Positions 468 to 21,165 of a stretch of 64,000 nt of DNA are shown here, piece by piece. The stretch is from Actinomadura rudentiformis (GTDB taxonomy: Bacteria > Actinomycetota > Actinomycetes > Streptosporangiales > Streptosporangiaceae). Numbering within the stretch: position 1 is the stretch's first letter; each line of letters starts with the position of its first letter. Where the stretch lies: contig NZ_WBMT01000036.1 in NCBI RefSeq assembly GCF_008923185.1, positions 1-64,000 on the forward strand. The letters are read 5' to 3'. The notes beneath the pieces were generated by a model. The model worked only from the letters and a program-made list of their open reading frames with translations, did no database searches and was not told the DNA's origin. The position numbers and the translations under genes are program-made.

Positions 468-1403
468 ATGGGCGACCACGGTGCCAGGGACTCGGCGGCG
501 GCCGAACCGAGCGTTCATCAGCTGCGGTTGTTCCTGGTGTTGAGTGAGGAGCTTCATTTCGGCCGTGCCGCCGGGCGGCTGTTCATCAGCCAGTCCGCGC
601 TCAGCCAGCAGCTCAAGGACATGGAGAAGCGGCTGCGAGTGCGGTTGTTCGAACGCACCAGCCGGACGGTCGAACTCACCACGGCAGGGCGGGCACTGCA
701 GGCAGAAGCCCGCACGGTCGTCGAGGGCATCGACCAGCTACGCCGTACCGCCGACGCCCAACTACGCCAGCTGACCGGCCGGCTCACCGTCGGAACCGTC
801 GGCGCCGAGGCCGCCATGCCCTACACCCGTGCAGTCCTGCAGGAACTCAACCACCAGCACCCCCACATCACCGTGCAGGTCCTCAGCCTCAACCTTGTCG
901 ACCACTTCGCCGATCTGATGCAGCAGAAAGTCGACGTGGTATTTCTACGACCTCCCGTGCCTGACGGCATCGAACTGCACCAGCTGGCCATCGAACCCAG
1001 AGTGGCCTGCCTCCCGGCCGATGACCCCCTGGCCAACGAGCCACAGATCATGCTGGAACAGCTCGCCGACCGTCCCGTCGTCGACGTTCCCCCACAGGTA
1101 CCGAGAACGTGGTGGGACTTTTGGGCAGTGGATCCGCGGCCTGACGGCAGCCGAGTCCGCTACGGACCCGTCGTCACCGATCTGGAAGCACTGCTCCACA
1201 TCGTCGCCCAAGGCAAGGCGATGTCCTTCCTGCCTGCAGCCGCCCGCGACTTCTTCCCCCGGCCCGGCATCCGCTACGTCGACGTTGTCGATCTGTCCCC
1301 ATCCACCTGCAGCCTGGCCTGGCTCAGCAAGCGCCGCAACGAACCCACCATCACCGCCATCCGTCAGGCTGCCCGAACCCACACCCGGCGACCCGGACCA
1401 TGA
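468..1403 (+). CDS. LysR-family transcriptional regulator
   Basis: A 311-residue LysR-type regulator. The N-terminal winged helix (about residues 14-75) contains the typical LHFGRAAGRLFISQSALSQQ helix-turn-helix followed by VRLFERTSR. The co-inducer domain follows from about residue 100, beginning LTVGTVGAEAA. The frame is open further upstream, but the ATG at 468 is preceded by a GGTGGGG ribosome site and gives the standard LysR length, so it is preferred. The likely target is the divergent Tat-exported protein gene (inference). Effector unknown. Confidence 0.9.
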   Translation: MGDHGARDSAAAEPSVHQLRLFLVLSEELHFGRAAGRLFISQSALSQQLKDMEKRLRVRLFERTSRTVELTTAGRALQAEARTVVEGIDQLRRTADAQLRQLTGRLTVGTVGAEAAMPYTRAVLQELNHQHPHITVQVLSLNLVDHFADLMQQKVDVVFLRPPVPDGIELHQLAIEPRVACLPADDPLANEPQIMLEQLADRPVVDVPPQVPRTWWDFWAVDPRPDGSRVRYGPVVTDLEALLHIVAQGKAMSFLPAAARDFFPRPGIRYVDVVDLSPSTCSLAWLSKRRNEPTITAIRQAARTHTRRPGP

Positions 1404-1839
1404 GGTTCCAGCGCGCTGCCGTGCTGTCAACACCGAGAGCAGCAGACGCGCACGCTGCCGGGGCCACTCGTCGTTCAAGCATCCGCTGATCAACCCGGAC
1501 GTAGGTGGGCGTCGGCGGTACGGCGTCGCCGGCGCGCGGTCCCGCCGCCACCGGGTTCCTGGCGCCAGTGTCCATGGCCGCTCTGCCAGCAACCATAAGC
1601 CGTGCATTATCAATCAGGGCGGGTTTTCGATGGCTCGTTTGCTGACAGTCTTACCGCCGCCATGCAAGCTTTTAACGCTGGCCGAATCAGGCCGCCGAAG
1701 GGCTGGCGCCTGCCGGGAACACCCCGACTCCAGTCGTGGCGGCCCTGCTGGTGCTGGACAGGTATGCCAGGGCAGAGCACCGCCAGGGGTACCGTGCGAT
1801 TTGGAGTATCCCAGTGCGATTCTCAGTGAGGCCATGACC
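1404..1839. other. Intergenic region, no gene recognised
   Basis: About 435 bases between the LysR and GlxA-type genes. Long frames crossing it, including an upstream extension of the GlxA frame, show no recognisable protein. The last bases hold the TCTCAGTGAGG ribosome-site segment (1821-1831), which also precedes the paralogue at 13458. Confidence 0.4.
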
Positions 1840-2880
1840 ATGGGTTTTCGTAGGGTCGTGGCGTATGCGCCGAAGGATGTAAGCACCTTGGGGTTGGCAT
1901 TGGTCGGTGAGGTGTTCGCCGACCGGTCCGACCTGGGGCTTCCGGCCTTCGATCTGGAGACGGCCACCGAGGTGCCGGGCCCGGTGCGTACGGATCTGGG
2001 ACTGACGCAACACATCGAATTCGGCCTCGACCGGCTGCCGGAGGCTGGACTGGTCGTGCTACTGCCCGGGAACGAGAGGCCGCTCTATCCGTCGCCGGCG
2101 GTCGCCGCCGCGATCCGGGCCGCTCATCACCGGGGTGCCATCATCGTGGCCTTCTGCACCGGGTCGTACCTGCTGGCCGCCACGGGGTTGCTTGATGGCC
2201 TGCGCGCCACGACGCATTGGAGTTTGACGGCTGATTTCGCCGCCCGTTTTCCGAAGGTGAAGGTCGTCCCGGGTCCTTTGTACGTCGATGCGGGCTCGCT
2301 GGTGACCGGTGCGGGTGGTGCCTCCGGCCTCGACATGTTCCTGCATGTGCTGCGTCGTGAACATGGTTCGCCGGCCGCCAGTGCGATCGCGCGTGAGCTG
2401 GTGGCCTCGGCGCATCGCCTCGGTGGTCAGGCCCAGTACACCCCCTATCCGATGCAGGCGGACTCCGGCGACGATCACATCGCGAAGGCGATCGCCTGGG
2501 CAGGGCAGAACCTGCACCGATCGCTCTCGGTGGACGATCTGGCGGTCCGGGCGCTGATGAGTTCCCGCACGTTCGCCCGGCGCTTCAAGGCGGTCACCGG
2601 CACCACCCCGCACGCCTGGCTCCTCAACCGGCGTCTCGATCGTGCCGAGGAACTCCTCGAGACCACCGACCTGAACATCGAAAAGATCGCCGAGCGGGTC
2701 GGCTACCGCAGCGCGACCGTCCTGCGCGAGCAATTCGTCAAGCGCCGCGGCATGCCGCCCCGTGCCTACCGCAACAGCGCCAACCGCCAATTCGCGATGA
2801 CAAACAATCGGATACACAGAAACGGTCCAGTCGTGGCGGCGGAGCGAAAAATCAAGCTGGCACCTGATCTGGCAACGTAG
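1840..2880 (+). CDS. GlxA-type AraC regulator with DJ-1/PfpI domain (copy 1)
   Basis: A 346-residue regulator with an N-terminal DJ-1/PfpI (GATase1-like) sensor domain (about residues 5-185) and a C-terminal AraC-type double helix-turn-helix (about 220-320: SSRTFARRFK, then EKIAERVGYRSATVLREQF). The putative nucleophile elbow reads FCTGSYLLAATG. The frame is open far upstream. The ATG at 1840 is chosen because it aligns with the GTG start of the paralogue at 13458 and both follow the same CAGTGAGG ribosome site. In the C-terminal helix-turn-helix 59 of 70 residues match copy 2, but copy 2 has Gly instead of Cys at the elbow (FGAGSYLL). Targets unknown. Confidence 0.88.
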   Translation: MGFRRVVAYAPKDVSTLGLALVGEVFADRSDLGLPAFDLETATEVPGPVRTDLGLTQHIEFGLDRLPEAGLVVLLPGNERPLYPSPAVAAAIRAAHHRGAIIVAFCTGSYLLAATGLLDGLRATTHWSLTADFAARFPKVKVVPGPLYVDAGSLVTGAGGASGLDMFLHVLRREHGSPAASAIARELVASAHRLGGQAQYTPYPMQADSGDDHIAKAIAWAGQNLHRSLSVDDLAVRALMSSRTFARRFKAVTGTTPHAWLLNRRLDRAEELLETTDLNIEKIAERVGYRSATVLREQFVKRRGMPPRAYRNSANRQFAMTNNRIHRNGPVVAAERKIKLAPDLAT

Positions 2881-3300
2881 AGCATTCGTGCCCACCTCGA
2901 TGGAACAGGCCGGGCTGCCGCGGGCAGCGGCTCGCACCCGCCAGTCCGACGGGGTGCGGCCCCCGGTTTCCAGATACCTGCCGGAACGACCCTGGCCTGG
3001 TCGGTTCCTCGAAAATTGTGCCCCACTGGTCGGTCACATCCTCGGGAGGTGGCAGGAAAGAGGAGATCTTTTGGCAGAGCTGCTGCTGGTTTGGTGCCTG
3101 CCCGTAATGGCAGTCTCTCCACGCGTGACCGGAGCGTCACGTAGCGACGACTTCCTGTTCGTCGCGCAAGGAGAGGGAGATCGTGTCATGGAGACAGCGA
3201 AACGGGGCCGGTCCATCCGGATCATCCGGAGTCGGCCTCCGCAAAGCGGCGACGCCCGGAAAGACCGGCCAGTCTCTCCGGCCCCGAGGACGAACGGGGC
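2881..3300. other. Intergenic region at edge of lanthipeptide cluster
   Basis: About 420 bases between the ends of two convergent genes. A rightward frame of about 146 codons runs through it but resembles no family I know. Several short inverted repeats occur, for example CCGGATCATCCGG near 3217, and may help terminate one or both genes. No promoter or RNA gene recognised. Confidence 0.35.
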
Positions 3301-5211
3301 TCAGGTCGCCAGGAACTGTTCGGCTTGAAGGCGGTACATGGCGGCGTATCTACCATTCGTGCTCATCAGTGCCGCATGCGTTCCCCGCTCCACCACCTGT
3401 CCCGCGTCGAGCACGTAAATCCGGTCGGCGCGGGCGACCGAGGCGAGGCGATGGGTGATCAGGATGACCATCGTGCCGTTCGCGGCCAGTTCGGTGATCT
3501 TGTTGAAGACGTCGATCTCGGCTGCGGGGTCCAGCGCGGACGTGGGCTCGTCCACGACCAGGACCGGTGCGCCGCGGTACCAGGCCCGAGCGAGGCCGAG
3601 GCGCTGCCACTGGCCACCGGACAGGTTGGTGCCGCCGAAGAACTCCCGGGCCAGCAGCGTGGACCAACCATCGTCGAGGCGGTCCACCACGACGTCGGCG
3701 CCGGTGGACCGCGCCGCGTTCGTCAGCCGGCGCCCCTCGGCAGGGCGGTCCGATCGGCCCACCACGATGTTCGCGAGCGCGGTGAACGGCCACTGGACGA
3801 AGTCCTGGGACACCAGGGACACCTGTTCCCACAGGGTGTCGCGGTCGAGTTCGGTCGTGGGCACGCCGTTCCACCGGACGCTTCCGGAGGACGGCAGGTA
3901 GAGGCCGGTCAGCAGTTTGGCGAGGGTCGACTTGCCGGACCCGTTCTCGCCGACGAGGGCGACCACCTGGCCGCGCTGGATGTCGATGTCGACGCCGTCC
4001 AGCGCCGGCGTCCGCGCGCCCGGATAGGTGAAGTGCAGCCCGTGGGTGCTGATCGTCTCCACCGGCGGTATCAGCGGTCGCGCGCGCACGGGGACGGCCT
4101 CGGCCCGTGCATGGCCGCAGACCTCGCGCCACTCGATGGTGAGCAGCCCGTCCTGGTACAGCTGCTGGAACTGCATGACGAACCCTGTCAGGCTCATCAT
4201 GCTGGACCGGATTGCGAACGCGGCGGTGCCGGCGGTCGCGAACGTCGTCCGGCCGTCGATCACCAGCAGCAGCAGCACACCATAGGTCGCGAGTGCGGCC
4301 AGCCCGCTCAGCGCACCGGCCAGCGAACGGGTGAACGCCTCTCCGCGCGCCAGCCGGGCCTGCTCATCCGCCGACAGCGTGGCCAGCCGGCGGTAATGCG
4401 CCAGCAGAAAGCCCCCCACCCGATGGGCGCGCACCTCCTCGGCGCTTTCGTGGTGGGTCATGAGCTGGGCGAGCAGGTCGACCTGCCGGGCCAGCTCCAT
4501 CCAACGCTTAGTCGACGCGTGTCGTGCGCCGGCGGTGCGTGCGACCCCCCACGCCCGTGGCGCCAGCGCGACGAAGAGCAGGGGCGTCAGCAACGGGTTC
4601 AACGCGACAAGCACCCACAGGGCGGCGAGGATCGACACTGCTCCGCCGCACAGGCCCACGGTGCTCTGGGTCACCCGTGCGGTGGCATCGGCGCCCTGCC
4701 GGGCGGTGCTGAGCCGGTTGTGGAAGTCGGCGTCCTCCATCGTGACTTGCTCGACCCGGACGGCCTGCTCCAGCAGGGTCAGCTGGGCCATCTGGGCGAT
4801 GCGCGGCCCGAGCCGCCCTGAGGCGGCGACGGCCACGGCCTCGCACAGACCCCGGATCGCCATCGCGCCGGCCACGAACGCCGCGACCGGCAGCAGGGAA
4901 TGGATCTTCTCGTCGGCCGGCGCCGCCGAGAACAGACCGGTGAGCAGCCGTTGCGCTGTGAGATAGGTCGCCGAGGTCGCGACACCCATCACGAGCTGAC
5001 TCACCGCCACGGCCGCCAGCGCGGCGGGATCGGCGCGGTAGCCGAGCCGGAGGGTGATTCCGATGATGGAGGGCAACTTGCGCAGTGCCGCGCGGGTACT
5101 GGCGTCCGCGGAGGAAGGCGGGTCGTACGAGAAGCGAAACCCCCGCCCGAACAACGGATCGGTCTCCGCTGAACGGGTGGGGGCTTGCCGGTGGCTCGCG
5201 CGCCTCACCAC
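3301..5211 (-). CDS. ABC transporter, LanT-type exporter (TMD-NBD fusion)
   Basis: A 636-residue half-transporter: a six-helix membrane domain (about residues 35-345) fused to an ATPase domain. The ATPase shows Walker A GENGSGKST, Q-loop VSQDF, signature LSGGQWQR, Walker B VLVVDEPTSALD and switch ITHRL. It presumably exports the modified lanthipeptide as a homodimer. No N-terminal C39 peptidase precedes the membrane domain, so it is not a leader-cleaving type. There is no suitable ATG. Two adjacent GTG codons at 5211 and 5208 lie just after the precursor stop at 5219, suggesting translational coupling. The second GTG could be the true start. Confidence 0.88.
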   Translation of the reverse strand: MVRRASHRQAPTRSAETDPLFGRGFRFSYDPPSSADASTRAALRKLPSIIGITLRLGYRADPAALAAVAVSQLVMGVATSATYLTAQRLLTGLFSAAPADEKIHSLLPVAAFVAGAMAIRGLCEAVAVAASGRLGPRIAQMAQLTLLEQAVRVEQVTMEDADFHNRLSTARQGADATARVTQSTVGLCGGAVSILAALWVLVALNPLLTPLLFVALAPRAWGVARTAGARHASTKRWMELARQVDLLAQLMTHHESAEEVRAHRVGGFLLAHYRRLATLSADEQARLARGEAFTRSLAGALSGLAALATYGVLLLLVIDGRTTFATAGTAAFAIRSSMMSLTGFVMQFQQLYQDGLLTIEWREVCGHARAEAVPVRARPLIPPVETISTHGLHFTYPGARTPALDGVDIDIQRGQVVALVGENGSGKSTLAKLLTGLYLPSSGSVRWNGVPTTELDRDTLWEQVSLVSQDFVQWPFTALANIVVGRSDRPAEGRRLTNAARSTGADVVVDRLDDGWSTLLAREFFGGTNLSGGQWQRLGLARAWYRGAPVLVVDEPTSALDPAAEIDVFNKITELAANGTMVILITHRLASVARADRIYVLDAGQVVERGTHAALMSTNGRYAAMYRLQAEQFLAT

Positions 5212-5218
5212 CGTTTTG

Positions 5219-5431
5219 TCAGCAAATGCACGGCTTGCCAGTGGCTCCGCAGGTGTGACTGCAGGTGCCGCAGAAGGTGCCCCCCGGCCGCGAGGGGTCG
5301 CACGCATAGACACAACCATCGCTGTCGCCGGCCATCCTGACGCCGTCGGCGGGCGCGGCATCGCGGAAGTGAGCCTCCCAGCCGAAGCCCGCGGCGCCCT
5401 CCATCCTCGGATCGAGGTCGAATTCACCCAT
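5219..5431 (-). CDS. Class I lanthipeptide precursor (LanA)
   Basis: A 70-residue peptide. The leader starts MGEFDLDPRM and carries an FDLD box (residues 4-7) like the FNLD/FDLD motif recognised by class I dehydratases. The acidic leader runs to about residue 33. The C-terminal part has seven Cys (40, 44, 54, 57, 61, 68, 70) and exactly seven Ser/Thr (37, 47, 52, 56, 58, 60, 64), ending Cys-Ile-Cys, with Asp at 36, 38 and 45. The ATG at 5431 follows AGAAAGG. It is the first gene of a leftward unit with the exporter and is divergent from LanB. Cleavage site and ring pattern are not visible. It belongs to no named lanthipeptide that I recognise. Confidence 0.9.
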   Translation of the reverse strand: MGEFDLDPRMEGAAGFGWEAHFRDAAPADGVRMAGDSDGCVYACDPSRPGGTFCGTCSHTCGATGKPCIC

Positions 5432-5639
5432 ATCAAGAGACCTTTCTGCATGGGAACTTTCCGGCCCGGCTTGGAAATGTCTCCGGCACACTCGCTAAAA
5501 GAGCAGTGCCGACCGGGTAACGCCACTCTATCTCGGCCAGTCAGCCCTAAAGCGGTCATTTCGAGGATCCTAGAAATATGCAGGGAATGGCGTGCGCTCG
5601 GCCTATTTTGGTCCTGGTCTGAGTCGTTGGGAGGGGGCC
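5432..5639. promoter_or_regulatory. Divergent lanthipeptide promoter region
   Basis: These 208 bases separate the precursor start from the LanB start and must hold both cluster promoters. The region is less GC-rich than its surroundings. It contains a 20-bp palindrome (5558-5577), and the LanB ribosome site GGGAGGGGG lies immediately before the ATG at 5640. I see no convincing -35/-10 pair in either direction. Confidence 0.6.
5558..5577. promoter_or_regulatory. Palindromic operator candidate in lanthipeptide promoter
   Basis: ATTTCGAGGATCCTAGAAAT is a dyad in which nine of ten base pairs match (arms ATTTCxAGGA and TCCTxGAAAT, one mismatched pair). Its position between the divergent precursor and LanB genes suggests a binding site for a cluster regulator. 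The best candidate is the winged-helix protein encoded at 11111 (inference). I did not see a second copy in the promoter of that regulator. Confidence 0.5.
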
Positions 5640-8600
5640 ATGGCACAGGAGCCGTTGTTCCGTGCACCGGATTTCGCCATTGTGCGGATGTCCGCACTGC
5701 CTGCAGGATCCTTGGCGCCGGCACCGCCGGACGACCTTGCCTCGCCAGAGGCGATGCGCCGTTATCTGCGTGAGGTGGCGGCCGATCCCGGTGTGCGCGA
5801 GGCCATCGCCGTGTCCAGCGCCGGGCTCGACGGTGCCCTGCACAAGGTCATGTCCGGGGCCGGGATGTCGACAGCCGGGCTGCGGCGGGCCGTGCTGGCG
5901 ACCACCCGGTATCTGTCCCGGATGACGCATCGGCCCACCCCCTTCGGGCTCATGGCCGGCGTCACCAGGGCACGGTTTGACGCGGAGCCCAAGTTCCGGA
6001 TCGGTTCCGAACATCGCAAGCATGCACGCGCCGACATGGGCTGGCTCATCAAGGTGATCCGGCCGTGGGAATCCGATCCAGCGGTGCTCGCACGCCTGCG
6101 TCTGGTCGCCAACGATCTCTGCTACGTCCGTGGTGACCGGCTCGTACTGCCTCTCGTCCGGCAGGAGACCGGCGAGCGGGCCCCGGATGACCGGGAGCAG
6201 ACGGTACGGGCGACGCGCGCGGTGCACGCCGTGATGGCCGCGGCGGAACATCCGATCGGCCATGGCGAGCTGGTTGACCGGTTGTGCGGACAGTTCCCGG
6301 ACGCGCCGCCGGAGGTCGTGCGGCGAATGGTGGCGCAGCTGGTCGAACGCGAGTTCCTGCTCACCGATCTACGCCCTTCGGCCACCACGGACGATCCCCT
6401 CCGGCATGTGCTGGAGCTGCTGCCGGAGGAGAGCGCGCTTGCCGGTGTCCGCGACGCGCTGGCGACGTATGCCGCGACCTCTCCAGGACAGGGGAGAGCG
6501 GCGTGGCGGGCGGCGACGTCTGCGATGCGCCGCCTGCACGCCGATGACCGGCTGATCCAGGTGGACCTCGGCATGGACGCTGATGTCGTCCTGCCCGACG
6601 AGGTGGCGGCCGAACTGGTGGAGGCGGCCACGATCGCCCGGCGGATCCTCCCGTCCCGCTTCGCACCGTTCGATCAGCTGGCCGGCTACCGGGCCGCCTT
6701 CATCGAGCACTACGGAACCGGCGTGCTCGTCCCGGTCAAGGAGGTGATCGACCCGGAGACGGGCATCGGGCCGCCGGCCGGCTACCTGCTGCCCCCGGGC
6801 CACCGGCGGGACCCTGATCGCCCGGCGTCGGACGGAGAACGGGACACGCTGCTGCTCGGCCTGGTACAGCGTGGTGGCCCGGAGATCGTGCTGGACGACG
6901 AGCTGGTCGAGCGGTTGGCCCGATTCGGCGGCGCGGACGAACCCGCCTCCTACGCGGAGGTGTGCGCCGAGCTCGTCGCCGATTCGGAGGACGAGCTGCG
7001 AGACGGCGACTTCCAGCTGGTCGCGACCGCGATGAACTTCACCCGGCCCGGCGCGATGGCCGGCCGTTTCCTGCACATCTTGCCCGAGCTCGGCCCTGCA
7101 GTGGCGGAGGTCGCCCGCGACGAGGCGGCCCCGGCGACCCCGGCGCAGGTTGTGGGTCCAGTGCTGGATTCCCGCCTTTCCAACGTCGCCCAGGTCCCGC
7201 TGCTGGCCGACGACCTGGTGGCAGCCGGCGTGTTCGCTGACCGCCCGGAGGCGCTCGATCTGGACGATCTGCTCATCGGCGCCGACCATGATCGCTTCTT
7301 GGTGATCTCCCGGCGGGACGGCCGTGAGCTGGCCCCCATGCCGTTCAACGCGCTGAACCCCCAACTCACCCTGCCGAACGCGGTCCGGCTCCTGATCGAG
7401 ATCGGTGAGAGCTGCACTCCGCCGTGGCCTCTGTGGAGTTGGGGCGCCGCCGGGGGAATGCCGTACCTGCCGCGTGTGCGGCGGGGCCGGACGATCCTGG
7501 CCCCGGCCCGATGGCTCCCCGACTCCCGGCTAACAGAGGAGTCGGATTGGGCCACCTGGGTGCGAGCCTTCGAGCGTTGGCGCGCCGACTGGGCGGTGCC
7601 CGACATCGTGTATGCGACCTACACAGACCATCGGGTGCGCCTCGACCTGACCAGCCCTGCGCACCTGCAGATGCTCCGCGCGGACTTGCGTAAACGTCCG
7701 GCCACGGTGCTCCAGGAGGCCCCGGCCGGCGGCCGCTACGGTTTCGGATGGGCGCGCGGGCACGCCACAGAGATCGTCGTTCCGATGCGGCCGGTCCGGC
7801 GCCGGAAGATCTCGGACACCACTCGACGCCGCACCACCCGGCAGAGCCATCCACCCGGCGGCGAATGGCTGTACCTGAAGGTCTACGCCAGTCCGGGACG
7901 GCACGGGGAGCTGCTCGGGCGTCACGTTCCCGCGCTCGTGCGCCGGGCGGCGGCACTCACCGACCGCTGGTTCTTCATGCGCTACCGGGACGAGGAACCC
8001 CATTTGCGGCTGCGCTTCCATGGCGAGCCGGCGGCGCTCGGCACGCATCTGCTGCCCGTCGTGCACGGCTGGGCCGCCGACCTGACTGCGGCCAAGCTGA
8101 TCAGCGGGATCGTCCTCGACACCTACCGCCCCGAGATCGACAGGTACGGCGGCCCAGAGCTGATCGAGGCGGCCGAACGGGCCTTCGGGGCTGACTCCGA
8201 CAGCGTCCTCGACCAGCTCGCGCTGCGCGCCCACGGACCGCTGGACGTGCCGATGCCGTTGCTGCTCGCGGCCAACCACCTCGATCTGGCGAAACACCTG
8301 CACGGCGAAGGGTGGCAGGAGTGGCTGCTGGAGACCTTCCCCAAGGGCCCGCGACACAAGGCGTTCCAGCAACATCGCCGGGAGGCGGTGCGGCTGCTGG
8401 ATCCGGCGACGGGCTTCGCGGAGCTGGCGTGCCTGCCCGGTGGACAGGCCTTGCTGGAGAGTTGGCGACGCCGAGCCGAGCTGATCACGGCCTACGGCAG
8501 GTCGGTCCGCGAGGCTCTGGACGATCCTTCGGACGTCTTCGCGAGCGTGCTGCACATGCACCACAACCGGCTCGCCGGGATCGACCCGTACGCGGAGCAG

Positions 8601-8669
8601 GACGCCTATGCCATCGCCCGCGGCGCCCTACAAGCCCACCAGGACCGAGAGCGACACCTGAACAGATGA
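5640..8669 (+). CDS. lanB: Lanthipeptide dehydratase LanB (full length)
   Basis: A 1009-residue class I dehydratase. By family knowledge it uses glutamyl-tRNA to glutamylate Ser/Thr of the precursor and then eliminates glutamate to give Dha/Dhb. The N-terminal glutamylation domain includes the THRPTPFGLMAGV segment near residue 97. The C-terminal SpaB-type elimination domain (from about residue 740) includes WLYLKVYASPG and WFFMRYRDEEPHLRLRFHG. Both domains are in one chain, as in NisB. The ATG at 5640 is fixed by the adjacent GGGAGGGGG. The stop overlaps the LanC start (ATGA), so the two are translationally coupled. Confidence 0.95.
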   Translation: MAQEPLFRAPDFAIVRMSALPAGSLAPAPPDDLASPEAMRRYLREVAADPGVREAIAVSSAGLDGALHKVMSGAGMSTAGLRRAVLATTRYLSRMTHRPTPFGLMAGVTRARFDAEPKFRIGSEHRKHARADMGWLIKVIRPWESDPAVLARLRLVANDLCYVRGDRLVLPLVRQETGERAPDDREQTVRATRAVHAVMAAAEHPIGHGELVDRLCGQFPDAPPEVVRRMVAQLVEREFLLTDLRPSATTDDPLRHVLELLPEESALAGVRDALATYAATSPGQGRAAWRAATSAMRRLHADDRLIQVDLGMDADVVLPDEVAAELVEAATIARRILPSRFAPFDQLAGYRAAFIEHYGTGVLVPVKEVIDPETGIGPPAGYLLPPGHRRDPDRPASDGERDTLLLGLVQRGGPEIVLDDELVERLARFGGADEPASYAEVCAELVADSEDELRDGDFQLVATAMNFTRPGAMAGRFLHILPELGPAVAEVARDEAAPATPAQVVGPVLDSRLSNVAQVPLLADDLVAAGVFADRPEALDLDDLLIGADHDRFLVISRRDGRELAPMPFNALNPQLTLPNAVRLLIEIGESCTPPWPLWSWGAAGGMPYLPRVRRGRTILAPARWLPDSRLTEESDWATWVRAFERWRADWAVPDIVYATYTDHRVRLDLTSPAHLQMLRADLRKRPATVLQEAPAGGRYGFGWARGHATEIVVPMRPVRRRKISDTTRRRTTRQSHPPGGEWLYLKVYASPGRHGELLGRHVPALVRRAAALTDRWFFMRYRDEEPHLRLRFHGEPAALGTHLLPVVHGWAADLTAAKLISGIVLDTYRPEIDRYGGPELIEAAERAFGADSDSVLDQLALRAHGPLDVPMPLLLAANHLDLAKHLHGEGWQEWLLETFPKGPRHKAFQQHRREAVRLLDPATGFAELACLPGGQALLESWRRRAELITAYGRSVREALDDPSDVFASVLHMHHNRLAGIDPYAEQDAYAIARGALQAHQDRERHLNR

Positions 8670-9949
8670 CAGCGCAGATCGTTGAAGCCATCGCCGGCAA
8701 GCTCGCCGATCCTCAGGAGGTCGCGGCCATCGCTGCCCGCCCGGGGAACGAGCTGGTCCTCCCCACGGCGACGATGAGGCAGTGGGAGACGCACGGGCTG
8801 TCGGACTCGTATCCGGCCGTGTCGCTGCTGTTCGCCGAACTCGGCGCCACCGATGCGGCCCAGCGACCCCGTGCGCACGCCCACCTGGCGGCGGGTCTTG
8901 CCGCGGACGCACCTCCACCGGTCCCCGCACTGTACGGCGGTGCCATGTCCCTCGGCTTCGCCGCCCACGCGGCGGCCCTCGCATCGGGCGGGTACACGAC
9001 TCTGCTGTCGCGACTGGACCAGGCCATCGTCGGGCAGGTTCGGCGCTGGGCTCGTGATCGGCGGTCGGCCGGCGCCCCCATCGGTGACTGGAGCGGTTAT
9101 GACGTCATCACCGGTGGGGCGGGGCTGGGCCGGTATCTGCTGGCCCGCCACGAACGGACGGGTGATGAAGGGGTCGGTGAGGCGCTGCGCGAGACCCTCG
9201 ACGTACTGGTGAACGTCGCGCTCGCCGCGGACACCAAGGTCGACGGACGGCCGGTGCCCGCCTGGTGGGTCCACCACGGTGTGACGCACGATGACACCGC
9301 CGGCCACCTCAACCTCGGTCTGGCGCACGGCCTGGGTGGTCCGCTCGCGCTGCTGGCCGTCGCCTGGCGCGCGGGCGTACGGGTGGACCGGCACGCGGAG
9401 GCGGCCGCCGCCATCGTGGCACTGCTCGATGACCGGCAGCTCGAAGATGAAGCTGGTCCCTACTGGCCCTACTGGGTGTTCCTCGACGGGGCCGATGATC
9501 CGGCCAGGATCCGTGATGTCTGGTGCTACGGGGCAGCGGGGGTGGGCCGTTCCCTGTACCTGGCGGGTTCGGCTTTCGACGAGAAGGAGTGGCGGGACAC
9601 CGGCGACGCCGCGGTGCGCGGTGCGCTCACCGGTCCCGCCGAGCACGCCATTCACGATGTCGCGTTGTGCCACGGCTGGGCGGGGTTGCTGCACATCGCC
9701 TCCCGGATGGCTCACGACACGGGCGATGCCGCGTACACGGCCGCCGCAGACGGGTTCGCCACTCGGATCGGCGAGGTCTATGACCCGGACGCGCCGTTCG
9801 GATTCCGGTACGCCCATCCCACCGCGCCGCACCAGACCGACCGTCCGGGTTTCCTCGAGGGCGCCGCCGGCATCGCCCTCGCCCTGCATTGCCATGGCAC
9901 CGGTGCGCCGCCCGTGACCGGCTGGGACGCCGCACTGCTCCTCAATTGA
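8666..9949 (+). CDS. lanC: Lanthionine cyclase LanC
   Basis: A 427-residue cyclase that adds Cys thiols to Dha/Dhb to form (methyl)lanthionine rings. Zinc ligands are visible: Cys287 in the WCYG motif, and Cys335 and His336 in CHGW. The other family signatures are the Gly-rich toroid repeats, such as VITGGAGLGRYLL and HLNLGLAHGLGGPLALL. The length is normal for the family. The start overlaps the LanB stop by four bases, and the JmjC gene follows 37 bases downstream. It would work with LanB and the exporter at the membrane. Confidence 0.95.
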   Translation: MTAQIVEAIAGKLADPQEVAAIAARPGNELVLPTATMRQWETHGLSDSYPAVSLLFAELGATDAAQRPRAHAHLAAGLAADAPPPVPALYGGAMSLGFAAHAAALASGGYTTLLSRLDQAIVGQVRRWARDRRSAGAPIGDWSGYDVITGGAGLGRYLLARHERTGDEGVGEALRETLDVLVNVALAADTKVDGRPVPAWWVHHGVTHDDTAGHLNLGLAHGLGGPLALLAVAWRAGVRVDRHAEAAAAIVALLDDRQLEDEAGPYWPYWVFLDGADDPARIRDVWCYGAAGVGRSLYLAGSAFDEKEWRDTGDAAVRGALTGPAEHAIHDVALCHGWAGLLHIASRMAHDTGDAAYTAAADGFATRIGEVYDPDAPFGFRYAHPTAPHQTDRPGFLEGAAGIALALHCHGTGAPPVTGWDAALLLN

Positions 9950-9986
9950 TACTCGCACTGCTCCCCACTGATATGGAGACCGCCGA

Positions 9987-10892
9987 ATGAGCTGGTCCGA
10001 CATCTTCGCCGACCCCGCCGACCGTGAGCGCCTGGAATGGGGCCGGGAACACCTGCGCTTCACCGCGTCCACGGCGACCACATCGCTGTTGAGCTTCCAG
10101 CGGATCGACGACTGGATCCGATACGGCCAGGTTCGCTATCCGCAGTTCCAGGTGAACATGCCGGAAGGTGGAGTGCCGCCCACGATGTTCACCGAGACAC
10201 GCCCGTATCTAGCCCTGAGCATGCCCGGCTACCCGGTCACCGCCGCGATCGCCGAACAGCTCCGGCAGGGGGCCACGCTGCGGCTCGTCGGGATCGAGGA
10301 CTGGTACCGGCCCGTCGCGGAGCTGGCCGACCGGCTCGCCGAGACCGTCGGCGCCGACATCACGACCTACGCCTTCTACACCTCCCCGGGAGACGGCGGG
10401 GTCGGTGCGCACTGGGACATGGCGGACGTCTTCGTGCTCCAGGTCGAGGGCACCAAGAAATGGAATCTCTGGGACATTCCGGGGGGCACCGACTGGCAGG
10501 ACAACCAGACCCTGCACACCGACCAGGACCCCGACCACGTGATCGAACTGACGCCCGGTGACGGCCTCTACATTCCGGCGGGCACCGGTCACCGGGCGTT
10601 CGCCGGGCCGGAGGGATCGCTGCACCTGTCGATCGCGGTGTCGGTGACCTCGCACCGCAAGATCGTGCGCACGCTGCTCGAGGAACTGATGACCGCCATT
10701 CCGCTGCTGGACCGGCTCCCGGTGGACGGTGACCGGCTCACCCCGATCGCCGCGCTGCTGCGCGAGGTCGCTGAGGCGGCCGACAAGGCCGACCCGGCCA
10801 AGCTCCTGACCAAGGCGGACCGGCGTGAACGGCGTATCAGCGAAGCGCCGCTCATCCCGGGGGTGGATCCTGCGGGTCATCGACCGTTCTGA
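9987..10892 (+). CDS. JmjC-domain Fe(II)/2-oxoglutarate oxygenase, probable lanthipeptide tailoring enzyme
   Basis: A 301-residue cupin-fold oxygenase. The iron-binding triad can be read as His142-x-Asp144 (GAHWDMAD) and His202 (AGTGHRAF). KKWNLWD at 157-163 follows and is typical of the ribosomal-oxygenase branch of JmjC proteins, where Lys binds 2-oxoglutarate. It is the last of the co-directional LanB-LanC-JmjC genes and its stop is followed by a hairpin, so it is very likely in the operon. Inferred role: hydroxylation of a residue in the precursor. The core offers Asp36, Asp38, Asp45, His59 and Arg48. It differs from CinX of cinnamycin, which belongs to another oxygenase family. Confidence 0.85.
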   Translation: MSWSDIFADPADRERLEWGREHLRFTASTATTSLLSFQRIDDWIRYGQVRYPQFQVNMPEGGVPPTMFTETRPYLALSMPGYPVTAAIAEQLRQGATLRLVGIEDWYRPVAELADRLAETVGADITTYAFYTSPGDGGVGAHWDMADVFVLQVEGTKKWNLWDIPGGTDWQDNQTLHTDQDPDHVIELTPGDGLYIPAGTGHRAFAGPEGSLHLSIAVSVTSHRKIVRTLLEELMTAIPLLDRLPVDGDRLTPIAALLREVAEAADKADPAKLLTKADRRERRISEAPLIPGVDPAGHRPF

Positions 10893-10902
10893 CCTGTCCG
10901 CC

Positions 10903-10922
10903 CGGGCCACCGCCGGTGGGCC
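10903..10922 (+). terminator. Hairpin after JmjC gene
   Basis: An inverted repeat of the form GGCCACC-GCC-GGTGGGCC with one bulge starts about ten bases after the JmjC stop. There is no T-run, as is common in high-GC actinomycetes. It probably ends the LanB-LanC-JmjC transcript. Confidence 0.45.
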
Positions 10923-11110
10923 TGTCGGCTGACCAGGAGGCGAGGGCCCTTACTGGCCTGCGTCCCAGGAATGCCGCGTACCCGACGTTCACGCCACAGC
11001 TCACTCAGAGTGATGCTCAGCCTGGTCACAGATCGGCGGGCCCGGGTGACCTGGTCTCCATCAAGGCGCAGACGTGAGGGGACGTAAGAAAGGTGACGCG
11101 GAGGTAGGAG

Positions 11111-12109
11111 GTGAAGCCCGTCCAGACGGTCACTGAACTCAGTATCGGCCAGGTCTTCGATGTGCGCGTGGCGCTCGACCCCTACGCGTCGACGCTGGCT
11201 CTGGGGCTCGACGCCCTCAGCCACCATCGTGGTGCTCCAGCACACTGGAAGCGCCGGATCCTCGGTTCGCTGACGGCCCGGAAAGCCTTGGCCATGCATC
11301 CGCTCACGGTCGAGGGCCAGTCGGTCGTCCCGGGTTCGGTCAAGCCGCTGAACCCGATCAGCGAGACCCCGGTCCGTGACCAGGTGGAACGACTCCGCGC
11401 CATTCCCGGGGAACAGTTGCTCGAGGATCTGGAAATGGCGTTCCCCTCCGGAGTCCTTCCGGCGCACTGGCGCCAGGTCGCGGACCGGCCCGAGGACTGG
11501 TTGCACCGCTACGCCGACACCATGGTGGACGTGTGGGAGGCCGTCGAACCCCTCTGGAAACACGCTCTTCCTCTGCTGGAGCGCGAGATAGAACGCATCG
11601 GCATCGCCTCCGTGCGGAACGGGCTCGGCACCGTCCTGGCCGGCCTGCATCCCGCCGCCTCGTTCGAGGACAACGTCCTCCGCATCCCCGATCCCGAACC
11701 CGCCCGGTTCGATCTCGGGGATCGTCCTCTCGTCCTGGTCCCGATGCTGGTCGGCGAGGATGCGCTGATCTGCGACTTCGACGACCCGGCGGGGGCCTGG
11801 ATCGCCTATCCGCTGCACGTCGTCCATGACCGGGCGCGCGGCCTCGAAGAACCCGGCTCGCTCGTCGCACTGGTCGGCCCCGTGCGCGCCACGCTGCTGT
11901 GTGCCGCGGCGCTGCCGGTCACCATGGGTGAATTGGCCAAGCTGACTCAGCTTGCCCCCAGCGCCGTGACCCATCACTGTGAACGGCTGGTGGCCAGCGG
12001 GCTGGTCCACCGCGAGCGGCAAGGCCGCGAGATCCGCATCCACCAGACCGAACGAGGCCGCAAAATCGTCGAGCTCTTCCCTCCAGACCCGCGCACCCTC
12101 GCCCCATGA
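11111..12109 (+). CDS. Winged-helix (ArsR-like) regulator with large N-terminal domain
   Basis: A 332-residue protein. Residues 1 to about 240 form an alpha/beta domain of the DUF5937-like kind, found by family knowledge in actinobacterial regulators. The C-terminus (about 250-325) is an ArsR-type winged helix (TMGELAKLTQLAPSAVTHHCERLVASGLVHRE). No metal-binding Cys pair is visible in the helix-turn-helix. The GTG start at 11111 follows GCGGAGG with good spacing. It is the first gene past the lanthipeptide operon terminator and probably controls the cluster (inference). Confidence 0.8.
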   Translation: MKPVQTVTELSIGQVFDVRVALDPYASTLALGLDALSHHRGAPAHWKRRILGSLTARKALAMHPLTVEGQSVVPGSVKPLNPISETPVRDQVERLRAIPGEQLLEDLEMAFPSGVLPAHWRQVADRPEDWLHRYADTMVDVWEAVEPLWKHALPLLEREIERIGIASVRNGLGTVLAGLHPAASFEDNVLRIPDPEPARFDLGDRPLVLVPMLVGEDALICDFDDPAGAWIAYPLHVVHDRARGLEEPGSLVALVGPVRATLLCAAALPVTMGELAKLTQLAPSAVTHHCERLVASGLVHRERQGREIRIHQTERGRKIVELFPPDPRTLAP

Positions 12110-13137: not shown

Positions 13138-13457
13138 GAGCCATCACCTTGTGTTCGTCACATCGCCTGCTGAGGTCCGGCCCGTGCCAACGCCCCCTCA
13201 ACTTGGCGCGCACGGTCAACAACCTGACGCTGCCCGACAACATTCCACGAGTGTCAGCTCCTACGGTTACCTCTCGTGAGGAGAACAGCGCTTTGCCTTC
13301 CCGGCGTCCCGGCCCGGCGCCGACTCGGGGATTCCCTTGGACAAGCAGCGGTAGGTGCAGGGCAACGCGGGGCTTTCGCCGAAAAGTGAGCCGCTAGGCA
13401 CAGCACCTGAGCGGCTCAATGGAATCCCGAAGCGCGTCAATCTCAGTGAGGTCAATC
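13138..13457. promoter_or_regulatory. Divergent region between AraC and GlxA-type genes
   Basis: About 320 bases with no credible gene; it should hold both promoters. A small dyad CCTCTCGTGAGG lies near 13270. TCTCAGTGAGG at 13441-13451 is the ribosome-site segment shared with GlxA-type copy 1. Confidence 0.4.
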
Positions 13458-14480
13458 GTGGGCTTTCATGCCGTCGTGGCGTACGCGCCGGAGAATCTGG
13501 ACACCCTCGGGTTGGCCCTGACCGGCCAAGTGTTCACCGACCGCTCCCACCTGGGACTTCCGGCCTTCGACCTGATGACGGTCACCGAGACACCGGGTTT
13601 GGTGCGCACGGATCTGGGGCTGACCCAGCACATCGAAACCGGCCTCGAGAAGCTGCCGGAGGCCGAGCTGGTCGTGCTGCTGCCGGGTGATGAGGGGACC
13701 TCGAATCCTTCCCTGGCAGTGATCGAGGCGATCCGGGCCGCCCATCGCCACGGCGCGATCATCGCCGCCTTCGGCGCCGGCTCGTACCTGCTGGCCGCCA
13801 CGGGACTGCTCGACGGCCGGCGCGCCACGACGCACTGGAGCCTGACGGCCGGCCTCGCCGCCCGCTTCCCGAAGGTCAAGGTCGTCCACGAACCCCTGTA
13901 CGTCGACGAGGGTCGCCTGGTGACCGGCGCGGGCGGGGCCGCCGGCCTCGACATGCTCCTGCACCTGCTGCGTCGCGACCACGGCTCGGCGGTCGCCAAC
14001 ACGATCGCACGCGAGCTGGTGGTCTCGGCGCATCGCCTCGGCGGGGAGGCGCAGTACATCCCCCATCCCATGCCGGTGCACTCCGGCGACGAACGCATCG
14101 CGGCGGCGATCGCCTGGGCGGGCGAGAACCTCCGGCGGTCATTGTCGGTGAACGAACTGGCCGCACGGGCGCTGATGAGCTCCCGCACCTTCGCCCGCCG
14201 GTTCAAGGAGAGCACCGGCACCACCCCGCACGCCTGGCTTCTCACTCAGCGCCTCAACCGCGCCGAGGAACTCCTCGAAACAACCGACCTGAGCATCGAA
14301 GAGATCGCCGAGCAGGTCGGCTACCGCAACGCCACCGTCCTCCGCGAACTCTTCGTCAAACGCCGCGGCATGCCTCCTCGCACCTACCGCACCATCTTCA
14401 ACCGCCGAACCACCCAACGGAACACATGCCGCGAACGGCCCCCCTGCGGCGATGGAATGGGAAACTCGATCCCAGCTTGA
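13458..14480 (+). CDS. GlxA-type AraC regulator with DJ-1/PfpI domain (copy 2)
   Basis: A 340-residue paralogue of the gene at 1840, with the same DJ-1/PfpI plus AraC layout and the same orientation. The start chosen is a GTG at 13458, six bases after GTGAGG, so that the protein begins VGFHAVVAYAPENL in register with copy 1; an in-frame ATG at 13419 is less likely. The elbow reads FGAGSYLLAATG, with Gly where copy 1 has Cys, so a Cys-based activity is not expected here. The C-terminal tail diverges from copy 1. Confidence 0.88.
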   Translation: MGFHAVVAYAPENLDTLGLALTGQVFTDRSHLGLPAFDLMTVTETPGLVRTDLGLTQHIETGLEKLPEAELVVLLPGDEGTSNPSLAVIEAIRAAHRHGAIIAAFGAGSYLLAATGLLDGRRATTHWSLTAGLAARFPKVKVVHEPLYVDEGRLVTGAGGAAGLDMLLHLLRRDHGSAVANTIARELVVSAHRLGGEAQYIPHPMPVHSGDERIAAAIAWAGENLRRSLSVNELAARALMSSRTFARRFKESTGTTPHAWLLTQRLNRAEELLETTDLSIEEIAEQVGYRNATVLRELFVKRRGMPPRTYRTIFNRRTTQRNTCRERPPCGDGMGNSIPA

Positions 14481-18005: not shown

Positions 18006-18080
18006 TCAGGGGGTATCGCGGTGGGACGCACTCAGGGAAGCATCGCGGTGAGCCGTACTTCAGGGGAGTATCGCGGTGAG
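18006..18080. repeat. Three tandem copies of the ammonia-lyase gene 3' end
   Basis: Three imperfect direct repeats start at 18006, 18032 and 18060 with core TCAGGGnnGTATCGCGGTG. The third copy is the end of the ammonia-lyase coding sequence, reading LTAILP-stop on the minus strand. The second, outside the gene, still reads LTAMLP-stop. The array looks like local duplication of the gene's last codons. Confidence 0.7.
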
Positions 18081-19550
18081 CAGCTCGGCGGCCGTGCGGA
18101 CATCGGAGTCCAACGGCCTGTCGGGATCGACCGGCGGGATCGCGTCGACCAGGGCGTCGAGGAGTGCGGCACAGCCCGGGGACGTGGGGCGGCGGGCGCC
18201 GACGTGCACTGCCTGCCGCAGGCCCACCGCCAGCGAACCGCAGAGCAGGCGCAGGAGGGCCGCCATGTCGTAGGCGCGGAGGGCGGCCTGTGTGCCGAAC
18301 GGCACCACGTCCTGGTTGTGCAGGTTGGTCGGCAGGCTCTGCATGCCGGCCGGCACGGCGGCGCGGCGGATCTCGGCGACGAACGCGGTCGTGGCGAGCT
18401 GTACCCCCTGCATCCCGTGCTGGCGGCCGGGTCCGGCGGCGAGCATCGGGGGCAGGCCTCCATTGCGGGCGGGGTCGACGAGGAGGTCGAGCTGCCGTTC
18501 GGCGAGGTTGCCGAGCTGGCCGGTGACCATGGCCAGCATGTCGGAGGCGAACGCGGCCGGCTGCCCGAAGAAGTTGCCGCCGTGCGCGACCAGGTCGTCA
18601 TCTGGAAAGAACAGCGGGTTGTCGCTCACGCTGGACAGGTCGGCCTCGACGACACCGTCGACGTACCGCAGGGCGTCCTCGGCGGCGCCCAGCAGTTGCG
18701 GGGAGCAGCGGATGCTGTAGGGCTCCTGCAGTGCACGTGTGCCGGCCGGGGTCATCCCGGAAAGGGTCTTGCGCATGCCGTCGGCGACGTCGACCGCGCC
18801 GGGATGGCCGTACGCGTCGAGGAGGCGCGGATCGAGGAAGCCGGGGTCGCAGCCGAGCAGATCGACCAGCAGACAGGTGAGCGCCTGCGTCGCGCGGTGA
18901 GAGGACCGGATGCTGTCCAGGGCCAGGGCGGTCGCGGCGGTGGTGAGGGACGTGCCGTTGACAAGTGCGAGGGCGTCCCGGCCGTCGAGCGTCAACGGGG
19001 TCAGCCCGGCGTGCCCGAGCGCCTCGGCCGCGGGCATCCGCTGGCCGTCGGCATACGCGTGTCCCCGGCCACGCAGCGCCTGGGTGGCATAGGCGAGCGG
19101 TATCAGGTCTCCGCTCGCGCCGACCGAACCGTAGCGTGGAATCGCCGGGGTGAACGTCGTCGCGAACATCGCGGCAAGCCCGTCGACCACGTGCGCCGAG
19201 ACCCCGGACTTCCCCTGCGCGAGAGACCACACGCGCACGAGGAGCGCGGCCCGTCCGACTTCATGGGGGAGATCCGGCCCCTGCCCTGCACCGAGGTGGG
19301 CCAGGGTGTTGTCACACTGGTCCGTCTCCTCGTCCCGGCCGGGGAACCCGACCAGGGCACCGAAGCCGGTGGTGGCGCCGTAGACCGGACGTTCCTCCTC
19401 CTGCAGTACGCCACGGAGGTGGTCACGGCCGCGTTCGACGCGGCTGCGGACGTCCGAGTCGACCACGACGGACACGGGCGCCGCGGCGCGGTGCAGGTCG
19501 GCGGAGCGCAGCAAAGCGCCGAGGTTGATGGAGCCTTCTACAGCGGGCAT
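18060..19550 (-). CDS. Aromatic amino acid ammonia-lyase, tyrosine-type (TAL or tyrosine aminomutase)
   Basis: A 496-residue member of the HAL/PAL/TAL family. The MIO-forming Ala145-Ser146-Gly147 lies in GSVGASGDL, and the catalytic Tyr57 lies in RPVYGATTGFG. The substrate-selectivity pair reads His85-Leu86 (NTLAHLGAG). In known enzymes His-Leu marks tyrosine, Phe-Leu phenylalanine and Ser-His histidine, so tyrosine deamination to p-coumarate is the best call. A tyrosine aminomutase cannot be excluded. There is no histidine-degradation gene nearby. Start ATG 19550 is chosen because the upstream extension runs through the operator. Divergent from a monooxygenase-ligase pair. Confidence 0.88.
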   Translation of the reverse strand: MPAVEGSINLGALLRSADLHRAAAPVSVVVDSDVRSRVERGRDHLRGVLQEEERPVYGATTGFGALVGFPGRDEETDQCDNTLAHLGAGQGPDLPHEVGRAALLVRVWSLAQGKSGVSAHVVDGLAAMFATTFTPAIPRYGSVGASGDLIPLAYATQALRGRGHAYADGQRMPAAEALGHAGLTPLTLDGRDALALVNGTSLTTAATALALDSIRSSHRATQALTCLLVDLLGCDPGFLDPRLLDAYGHPGAVDVADGMRKTLSGMTPAGTRALQEPYSIRCSPQLLGAAEDALRYVDGVVEADLSSVSDNPLFFPDDDLVAHGGNFFGQPAAFASDMLAMVTGQLGNLAERQLDLLVDPARNGGLPPMLAAGPGRQHGMQGVQLATTAFVAEIRRAAVPAGMQSLPTNLHNQDVVPFGTQAALRAYDMAALLRLLCGSLAVGLRQAVHVGARRPTSPGCAALLDALVDAIPPVDPDRPLDSDVRTAAELLTAILP

Positions 19551-19569
19551 GCCTGGACCATAGAAGCTG

Positions 19570-19591
19570 AATCTCAGAATCCTCTGAGATT
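19570..19591. promoter_or_regulatory. Perfect inverted repeat between ammonia-lyase and monooxygenase genes
   Basis: AATCTCAG (19570-19577) and CTGAGATT (19584-19591) are perfect 8-base arms around a 6-base spacer, in the middle of a 61-base divergent gap. So short a gap means the two promoters overlap, and a protein bound here would control both directions. No regulator gene is adjacent. Confidence 0.6.
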
Positions 19592-19611
19592 TCGTCGGTA
19601 GCTTCCGGCAC

Positions 19612-21165
19612 ATGCCGCATGACTACCTGATCATCGGGGCCGGACCGGCGGGGCTGCAGCTCGCCGCATTGTTGGAACGTGACGGACACGACTATGCCGT
19701 TCTGGAACGCGGAGCCGGGCCGGGCACCTTCTTCACCCGGTTCCCACGGCACCGCCAACTGATCTCCATCAACAAGGTGCACACCGGGTACCGGGATCCG
19801 GAGCTGCGGCTGCGGATGGACTGGAACTCGTTGCTGAGCGACGATCCGGACCTGCTGTTCACCCGCTACAGCGAGCGGTACTTCCCGCAGGCCGACGATC
19901 TCGTGCGCTACCTGTCGGACTTCGCCTCGGCGACGGGCGTCCAGGTGCACTACGACACCGAGATCGTCCGGATCAGCCGGGACGACGACGGGTTCACCGC
20001 CGTCGACCACCGCGGACGGTCATGGCGGGCCCGGCGGCTGGTCGTGGCCACCGGCGTGTCCCGGCTGTACGTCCCGCCGATCCCCGGCATCGAGACCGCC
20101 GAACACTACGACACGTTCGAGACCGCCCCCGCGTCCTTCGCCGACCAGCAGGTCCTGGTGATCGGCAAGGGCAACTCGGGGTTCGAGACCGCAGAGGCGC
20201 TCATGGAGAAGGCCGCGGTCATCCACGTCGCCGGGCCGCACTCGGTCAAGATGGCCTGGCAGACGCATTACGTCGGGCACCTGCGCGCGGTGAACAACAA
20301 CTTCCTCGACACCTACCAGCTGAAGTCCCAGAACTCGGTCCTCGACGGCATCGTGGAAAGCATCGAACGCCAAGGCGACGGCCGCTACCGGGTGATGTTC
20401 CGCTACGCCCGCACCGTGGAAGCGCTGCGCGAACTGTTCTACGACCGGGTCATCGTGTGCACCGGCTTCCGGTTCGACGCCTCGGTGTTCGACGACGACT
20501 GCCGGCCGGCGCTGGTCATCAACGACCGTTTCCCCGAGCAGACGCCGGCGTACGAGTCGACCACCGTGCCCGGTCTGTACTTCGCCGGCACGCTCACCCA
20601 GCAACGCGACTTCAAGAAGTCCACCAGCGGGTTCATCCACGGTTTCCGCTACGGCGTGCGCGCGCTCTACCGGATCCTGATCACGCGCTACCACGGTGAG
20701 ACCTGGCCGGCCGAAAAGCTCGAACCCGCTCCGGACGTGATCAGTGACGCGATCATCACCCGGGTCAACCGCTCCTCCGCGCTGTGGCAGCAGTTCGGCG
20801 TGCTCGGCGACGTGGTCACCGTGGACGGCGCCATCGCGTTGTACCAGGAGGAGGTCCCGGTGGCCTATACCGCCGATGGTGGGCTCGGCGATGCCCGGCA
20901 CAGGTTCGTCATCACGCTGGAATACGGACCGGATCACGACAAGGGCGACCCGTTCGACATCTCGGTCCCGCGGGTCGTCGAGAACGACGCCGCCAACGCC
21001 CACGACGCGAGCTACCTGCACCCGGTGGTGCGGTACTACCGCGACGGCGCGATGGCCGGTGTCCACCACCTCGCGGAGAACCTCGACAACCAGTGGAATC
21101 TGCCCGCGGTGCATCAGCAGCCGCTGGCCGTCTTCGTCAAGGAATGTCTCGCCGATGCCGGCTGA
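19612..21165 (+). CDS. FAD-dependent NAD(P)H monooxygenase (FMO/FOXRED2-like)
   Basis: A 517-residue flavoprotein. The FAD Rossmann motif is at the N-terminus (DYLIIGAGPAGLQLA, about residues 4-18). A second dinucleotide motif (VLVIGKGNSGFETAEAL) lies near residue 180, and CTGFRFDAS follows near 285. This two-nucleotide-domain plan is that of flavin monooxygenases. ATG 19612 has no clear ribosome site. Divergent from the ammonia-lyase and overlapping the ligase gene by 11 bases, it probably oxidises the tyrosine-derived acid or its product (inference). The C-terminal 150 residues are extra to the basic fold. Confidence 0.85.
   Translation: MPHDYLIIGAGPAGLQLAALLERDGHDYAVLERGAGPGTFFTRFPRHRQLISINKVHTGYRDPELRLRMDWNSLLSDDPDLLFTRYSERYFPQADDLVRYLSDFASATGVQVHYDTEIVRISRDDDGFTAVDHRGRSWRARRLVVATGVSRLYVPPIPGIETAEHYDTFETAPASFADQQVLVIGKGNSGFETAEALMEKAAVIHVAGPHSVKMAWQTHYVGHLRAVNNNFLDTYQLKSQNSVLDGIVESIERQGDGRYRVMFRYARTVEALRELFYDRVIVCTGFRFDASVFDDDCRPALVINDRFPEQTPAYESTTVPGLYFAGTLTQQRDFKKSTSGFIHGFRYGVRALYRILITRYHGETWPAEKLEPAPDVISDAIITRVNRSSALWQQFGVLGDVVTVDGAIALYQEEVPVAYTADGGLGDARHRFVITLEYGPDHDKGDPFDISVPRVVENDAANAHDASYLHPVVRYYRDGAMAGVHHLAENLDNQWNLPAVHQQPLAVFVKECLADAG

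What the first reader, a model, noticed from the sequence alone, without database searches (positions are those of the whole stretch)
3301..12109. Compact class I lanthipeptide cluster with a JmjC oxygenase
Seen: divergent units of precursor plus exporter, and LanB, LanC and a JmjC-type oxygenase with an intact His-Asp-His triad and Lys, followed by a regulator. Established: LanB and LanC together make class I lanthipeptides. Inference: the product is a hydroxylated, heavily ringed lanthipeptide. I know of no named lanthipeptide with this precursor. There is no protease, LanD, immunity LanI or LanFEG gene in the cluster.
Basis: partly seen in the sequence, partly recalled or inferred. Interest (0 to 1): 0.92.

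Follow-up and report, generated by a model that had tools for sequence, protein, structure and literature searches.

The report
Class I lanthipeptide cassette with JmjC oxygenase
A soil actinobacterium carries a small set of genes that should make a cross-linked, antibiotic-like peptide and then oxidise one of its amino acids with an enzyme related to those that hydroxylate ribosomal proteins.

Summary
Window 3301-12109 holds a 70-aa FDLD-leader precursor (7 Cys), an ABC exporter, full LanB, LanC, a JmjC_2 (PF08007) oxygenase with intact HxD...H and Lys, and a winged-helix regulator. Five other genomes among 341 searched carry the same precursor and JmjC (65-83% identical). The shared block has sharp edges, and in Streptosporangium carneum the precursor-exporter half is inverted; JmjC follows LanC in every locus of its group (8 of 8, one of them a JmjC fragment). 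It is under purifying selection. Best reading: a class I lanthipeptide pathway with a dedicated JmjC peptide hydroxylase. The predicted fold is nearest the histidyl hydroxylase NO66, but the Tyr and Ser that hold the target His there are Phe and Ala/Thr/Met here. V-Y-x-C-D-P occurs in 6 of 6 JmjC+ precursors and in neither of two JmjC- sister precursors, so I favour Asp45 as target, then His59. JmjC_2 proteins also sit in 9 of 20 further LanC loci. JmjC hydroxylation is known in another RiPP (BipG, biphenomycin); I found no JmjC enzyme reported in a lanthipeptide cluster in the open papers searched. New variant of a known kind; no chemistry is shown.

The parts
3301..5211 (-). ABC exporter (permease-ATPase), no C39 peptidase domain recognised
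   Evidence: PF00005 E 1.4e-29; orthologue beside the precursor in L001, L003, L034
5219..5431 (-). precursor peptide, 70 aa, FDLD leader, core with 7 Cys and 7 Ser/Thr
   Evidence: homologues in G251, G240, G305, G236, G011
5640..8669 (+). LanB dehydratase, glutamylation and elimination domains in one protein
   Evidence: PF04738 and PF14028; 5ehk E 8.9e-120
8666..9949 (+). LanC cyclase with zinc-site motifs
   Evidence: PF05147 E 2.3e-44; alignment with NisC and 8byk
9987..10892 (+). JmjC_2 Fe(II)/2-oxoglutarate oxygenase, H142/D144/H202 and K157
   Evidence: PF08007 E 4.6e-20; conservation; model pLDDT 88 and fold match to NO66
11111..12109 (+). winged-helix (ArsR/MarR-like) regulator, optional member
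   Evidence: follows JmjC in L001, L034, L042; not found in L003 nor in the 1.4 kb left in L041

Best explanation
A compact class I lanthipeptide cassette. LanB recognises the FDLD leader and dehydrates Ser/Thr of the core; LanC closes up to seven thioether rings; the JmjC enzyme uses Fe(II), O2 and 2-oxoglutarate to hydroxylate one core side chain, most likely the beta-carbon of Asp45 in V-Y-x-C-D-P, with His59 of S-H-T-C as runner-up; the ABC protein exports the peptide, a protease encoded elsewhere removes the leader, and the winged-helix protein regulates. Shown here: gene identities, catalytic residues, co-conservation. Inferred: rings, hydroxylation, target, export, protease, regulation. 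Odds: class I lanthipeptide 0.93; JmjC acts on this peptide 0.8; given that, target Asp45 about 0.4, His59 about 0.25, another residue the rest.
For: LanB, LanC, JmjC and precursor families and motifs. JmjC orthologues (65-83%) in 5 other genomes of 341, plus G186 at 39% and a fragment in G190; LanC is adjacent in 8 of 8 loci and LanB is seen in 7 of 8 (the G236 contig ends inside LanC), while 7 loci of remoter JmjC hits have neither. Sharp block edges and an inverted half in S. carneum. JmjC dN/dS 0.255-0.450 over 15 pairs. The six JmjC+ LanC rows group together (84/71), next to two JmjC- clusters. V-Y-x-C-D-P in 6 of 6 JmjC+ precursors, absent from the two JmjC- sisters. NO66's Tyr328 and Ser421, which hold the target His (PMC4556315 and PMC9994133, passages), fall on F130 and A217.
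Against: No chemistry was tested. The target rests on six against two precursors, and in the JmjC- G027 peptide the aligned V-L-A-A-E-P could belong to the leader. The remoter JmjC clusters L035 and L040 lack C-D-P. The fold is closest to a histidyl, not an aspartyl, hydroxylase. Only 14 of 150 listed JmjC hits lie within 12 kb of one of the 50 best LanC hits, so JmjC proteins in general are not tied to LanC.
Confidence: 0.75

Rival explanations
1. The JmjC enzyme is a histidyl beta-hydroxylase like NO66/MINA53 and modifies core His59.
For: Best fold matches are NO66 (Z 23.8) and one MINA53 entry (Z 22.9); His stands just before T-C in 5 of 6 JmjC+ precursors.
Against: The Tyr/Ser pair that holds the His in NO66/MINA53 is F130 and A217 here. 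Two other MINA53 entries score Z 18.3 and 18.0, no better than the arginyl hydroxylase YcfD at 18.5. In G011 the residue before T-C is Asp, with His one earlier; JmjC- peptides also contain His.
Confidence: 0.2
2. The JmjC enzyme acts on another protein, for example a ribosomal protein giving self-protection, and not on the peptide.
For: The nearest solved relatives act on ribosomal proteins; no immunity gene was recognised.
Against: Its group was seen only beside LanC (8 of 8), and other JmjC_2 proteins recur in 9 of 20 further LanC loci, which fits peptide tailoring better.
Confidence: 0.12
3. The cluster is decayed or unexpressed and makes no peptide.
For: No protease or immunity gene was recognised nearby; expression is unknown.
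Against: Every frame is intact, catalytic residues are kept, and dN/dS of JmjC is below 0.5 in 15 of 15 pairs.
Confidence: 0.06

Closest known systems
Class I lanthipeptide clusters of Actinobacteria (NAI-107/microbisporicin type; families I 1-4 with an isoaspartate O-methyltransferase, PMC7268733, passages)
   Same: LanB (best solved relative 5ehk, listed as lantibiotic dehydratase; that it is MibB is recalled), LanC, FxLD leader
   Different: No methyltransferase or P450 recognised in the cassette; a JmjC_2 oxygenase follows LanC; precursor with V-Y-x-C-D-P
Ribosomal oxygenases NO66, MINA53, YcfD
   Same: PF08007 domain, HxD...H triad, same-position Lys as MINA53/NO66
   Different: 301 aa against 373-489 in the solved chains; His-holding Tyr and Ser missing; gene in a lanthipeptide operon
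BipG of biphenomycin biosynthesis, JmjC ornithine hydroxylase (PMC12707348, passages)
   Same: A JmjC protein as a tailoring hydroxylase in a RiPP pathway
   Different: No lanthionine chemistry there; target is ornithine; sequence not compared here
CinX/DurX-type Asp hydroxylases of cinnamycin/duramycin (PMC10373908, passages; CinX recalled)
   Same: Hydroxy-Asp in a lanthipeptide would be the analogous product
   Different: DurX belongs to duramycin, whose cluster class and enzyme family were not compared here (recalled: class II, not JmjC_2)

Membership tests
Class I lanthipeptide biosynthesis | LanB with glutamylation and elimination domains | tested here: met
   PF04738 and PF14028 far above cut-off; full-length match to 5ehk, partial to NisB
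Class I lanthipeptide biosynthesis | separate LanC cyclase with zinc-site Cys, Cys-His | tested here: met
   PF05147; WCYG, CHG, LAHG aligned with NisC
Class I lanthipeptide biosynthesis | FxLD-type leader motif and Ser/Thr/Cys core | tested here: met
   FDLD at residues 4-7; core 7 Cys, 7 Ser/Thr
Class I lanthipeptide biosynthesis | lanthionine rings in the product | not testable with these tools
   needs mass spectrometry
Named precursor families of NCBIfam and Pfam | precursor scores against a precursor model | tested here: inconclusive
   no match at E<=0.1; whether an FxLD precursor model is in the library was not checked
JmjC_2 (PF08007) oxygenases | domain score above cut-off, HxD...H triad | tested here: met
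   71.9 bits against 22; triad invariant in 29 rows
NO66/MINA53 histidyl hydroxylases | Tyr and Ser that hydrogen-bond the target His | tested here: not met
   F130 and A217 at these places; position 217 is A, T or M in seven orthologues
Class I families I 1-4 with isoaspartate methyltransferase | O-methyltransferase PF01135 in the cluster | tested here: not met
   no PF01135 among the 18 scanned ORFs
BipG-type RiPP JmjC hydroxylases | sequence relationship to BipG | not tested
   BipG sequence was not fetched

The most novel reading that the evidence does not exclude
This is a first lanthipeptide pathway with a JmjC hydroxylase: a NO66-like enzyme without the histidine-holding pair that beta-hydroxylates the Asp of V-Y-x-C-D-P. 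It is one member of a wider set of LanC clusters in this bacterial family that recruited JmjC_2 enzymes, including class I clusters with a second LanC and DUF4135 clusters with two JmjC-like genes in a row.
Probability: 0.3. Interest if true: 0.65.

Novelty: new variant of a known kind. Interest (0 to 1): 0.5.

Why it matters
It is a five- to six-gene test system for a tailoring step that I did not find reported in lanthipeptides, with a named target residue to check, and it shows that PF08007 oxygenases recur beside LanC in this family. If hydroxylation is confirmed it adds a compact peptide hydroxylase for RiPP engineering and a bacterial comparison point for how ribosomal-oxygenase-like enzymes change substrate.

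Tried and rejected
Chance neighbours: rejected, since the block is conserved with sharp edges and purifying selection. LanC of a class II-IV synthetase: NCBIfam's best hits are LanL and LanM but far below their cut-offs, and a complete LanB is adjacent. Wider spread of this JmjC group: not found; among 394 genomes drawn from the class (some of the window's own family) the best hit other than the window's was 96.9 bits, and one scan of genome contigs, which needs exact short stretches of P0005, gave 3 relatives, two Actinomadura and one Streptosporangium. In plasmids all 69 matching records were under 60% identity. A basic target residue (as for YcfD): the position before P-C is K, R, R, R, N, H in the six precursors. 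Tandem repeats: none in the first 15 kb.

Literature: searches (some listings capped: 20 of 345, 15 of 629); I read listings and passages, no whole paper. None of what I saw describes a JmjC enzyme in a lanthipeptide cluster. PMC12710340 (passage) notes bacterial JmjC relatives in RiPP-like contexts, and most subscription papers are not held, so an existing report cannot be excluded. One search was for ribosomal-oxygenase active sites.

Faulty runs: (tblastx) was too noisy and was replaced. The LanC trees held wrongly extracted rows and were replaced. One search failed for a sign in a search term.

Full report
What is there. The window lies in a genome of 10,703,167 bases in 50 contigs. The genus is probably Actinomadura: the same-genus genome G251 has a contig of the same length (710,297) as the Actinomadura macra contig of L001. 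The cassette reads exporter (3301-5211, minus), precursor (5219-5431, minus), LanB (5640-8669), LanC (8666-9949), JmjC (9987-10892), winged-helix regulator (11111-12109). Pfam recognises all but the precursor.

The precursor begins MGEFDLDP. Taking the core to start after R-M-A (my assumption), it has 7 Cys and 7 Ser/Thr and the leader has no Cys. Seven rings is therefore an upper limit.

Relatives. A JmjC search of 341 genomes of the family gives a tight group: own genome, G251 83%, G240 81%, G236 76%, G305 76%, G011 65%, then G186 39%; the other listed hits score 97 bits or less. One of these, G190, is nearest to G186 but its JmjC lacks the HxD part. Of 14 fetched loci, tblastn finds LanC beside JmjC in 7 (L001, L003, L034, L035, L040, L041, L042) and LanB in 6 of these; L042 ends inside LanC, beside an adapter-like string. 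The other 7 loci, remoter JmjC hits, have neither. A profile of four precursors finds strong matches in the window's genome and the five with 65-83% JmjC; in G236 and G011 the peptide lies on another contig than JmjC. Seven further genomes gave weaker matches, E 3.5e-8 to 0.007.

Cassette behaviour. DNA similarity to A. macra runs from window 3292 to 10885, then 11103 to 12094 for the regulator. In S. carneum the precursor-exporter half is inverted and the regulator is not found in the 9 kb after JmjC. Flanks show no DNA match longer than 120 bases except an AraC-type gene (window 13530-14390) near the cassette in A. macra and G240. JmjC dN/dS is 0.255-0.450 over 15 pairs. In a LanC tree of 26 rows the six JmjC+ members group together (84/71; the five nearest 100/100), next to the JmjC- clusters G006C1 and G027 (joins 85/80 and 81/44), with three DUF4135 clusters outside. 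JmjC presence needs five changes on this tree, three of them forced by well-supported branches; 7 of 500 label shuffles are as low, mean 8.2. In 20 wide LanC loci, 9 have a JmjC_2 protein; 11 gave no hit with seven JmjC queries at E<=0.05.

The JmjC enzyme. H142, D144, K157 and H202 are invariant in 29 aligned rows. The model has mean pLDDT 88.1, the last 20 residues below 50. Its best matches are NO66 (Z 23.8, rmsd 5.4 over 273) and MINA53 entry 4bxf (22.9); two other MINA53 entries (18.3, 18.0), YcfD (18.5) and B. subtilis YxbC (18.5) tie below. The rmsd values are high. NO66 entry 4y33 has 466 residues and aligns 99-246 to P0005 76-217; its paper names the construct 176-C, so chain position plus 175 gives residue numbers. 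That puts Tyr328 on F130 and Ser421 on A217, and the printed alignments of 4ccn and 4e4h show Y and S there. These two residues hydrogen-bond the target His in NO66, as do Tyr167 and Ser257 in MINA53 (PMC4556315, PMC9994133, passages). F130 is invariant in seven orthologues; position 217 is A, T or M. The metal and 2-oxoglutarate site is kept; the known His-holding pair is not.

The target. In six JmjC+ precursors the invariant core residues are V-Y-x-C-D-P, one Cys, and T-C-x-x-T-G-x-P-C-x-C. The JmjC- peptide of G027 keeps T-C-C-A-T-G-I-P-C but aligns V-L-A-A-E-P to V-Y-x-C-D-P (possibly leader); that of G006 has neither. The residue before P-C varies. His stands just before T-C in five of six; in G011 it is Asp with His one earlier. 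I therefore put Asp45 first and His59 second. The set is small, and the remoter clusters L035 and L040 lack C-D-P.

How it works. Shown by sequence: enzymes with catalytic residues, co-conservation. Established for the families: LanB dehydrates, LanC cyclises, PF08007 enzymes hydroxylate. Inferred: target, order of steps, export, protease, regulation.

Novelty. BipG, a JmjC protein, hydroxylates ornithine in biphenomycin biosynthesis (PMC12707348, passages). Hydroxylated lanthipeptides are known: duramycin by DurX, NAI-107 by a P450 (PMC10373908, passages). In the searches named under Tried and rejected I saw no JmjC enzyme in a lanthipeptide cluster. I rate this a new variant of a known kind.

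Noticed in passing
L078, L079, L080 (G181, G182, G154): Clusters with a LanC close to the window's (50-52%) but no LanB hit: in L079 a DUF4135 (LanM-dehydratase-like) protein, a JmjC_2 protein and, just before it in the same direction, a second protein about 28% identical to that JmjC with no Pfam match; L078 and L080 show the same JmjC pair.
   Followed up: partly
L082, L084, L085, L089, L092: Class I clusters with LanB, two LanC-like proteins, an ABC exporter and a JmjC_2 protein; the second LanC of L089 was confirmed by Pfam.
   Followed up: partly
window 1021-2880 and 13419-14480: Two AraC/DJ-1-type regulators lie on either side of the cassette; an AraC-type relative of the second is near the cassette in A. 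macra and G240.
   Followed up: no
L040 9018-9629: The JmjC of G190 matches PF08007 only from profile position 34 and lacks HxD: truncated, frameshifted or an assembly fault.
   Followed up: no
L042 position 6656 (Actinomadura fibrosa contig end): A string that I recall as an Illumina adapter sits where the contig ends inside LanC.
   Followed up: no
window 18060-19613 and 19612-21165: An aromatic amino acid lyase (PF00221, E 8.6e-133) and a flavin oxidoreductase-like protein; no visible tie to the cassette.
   Followed up: no
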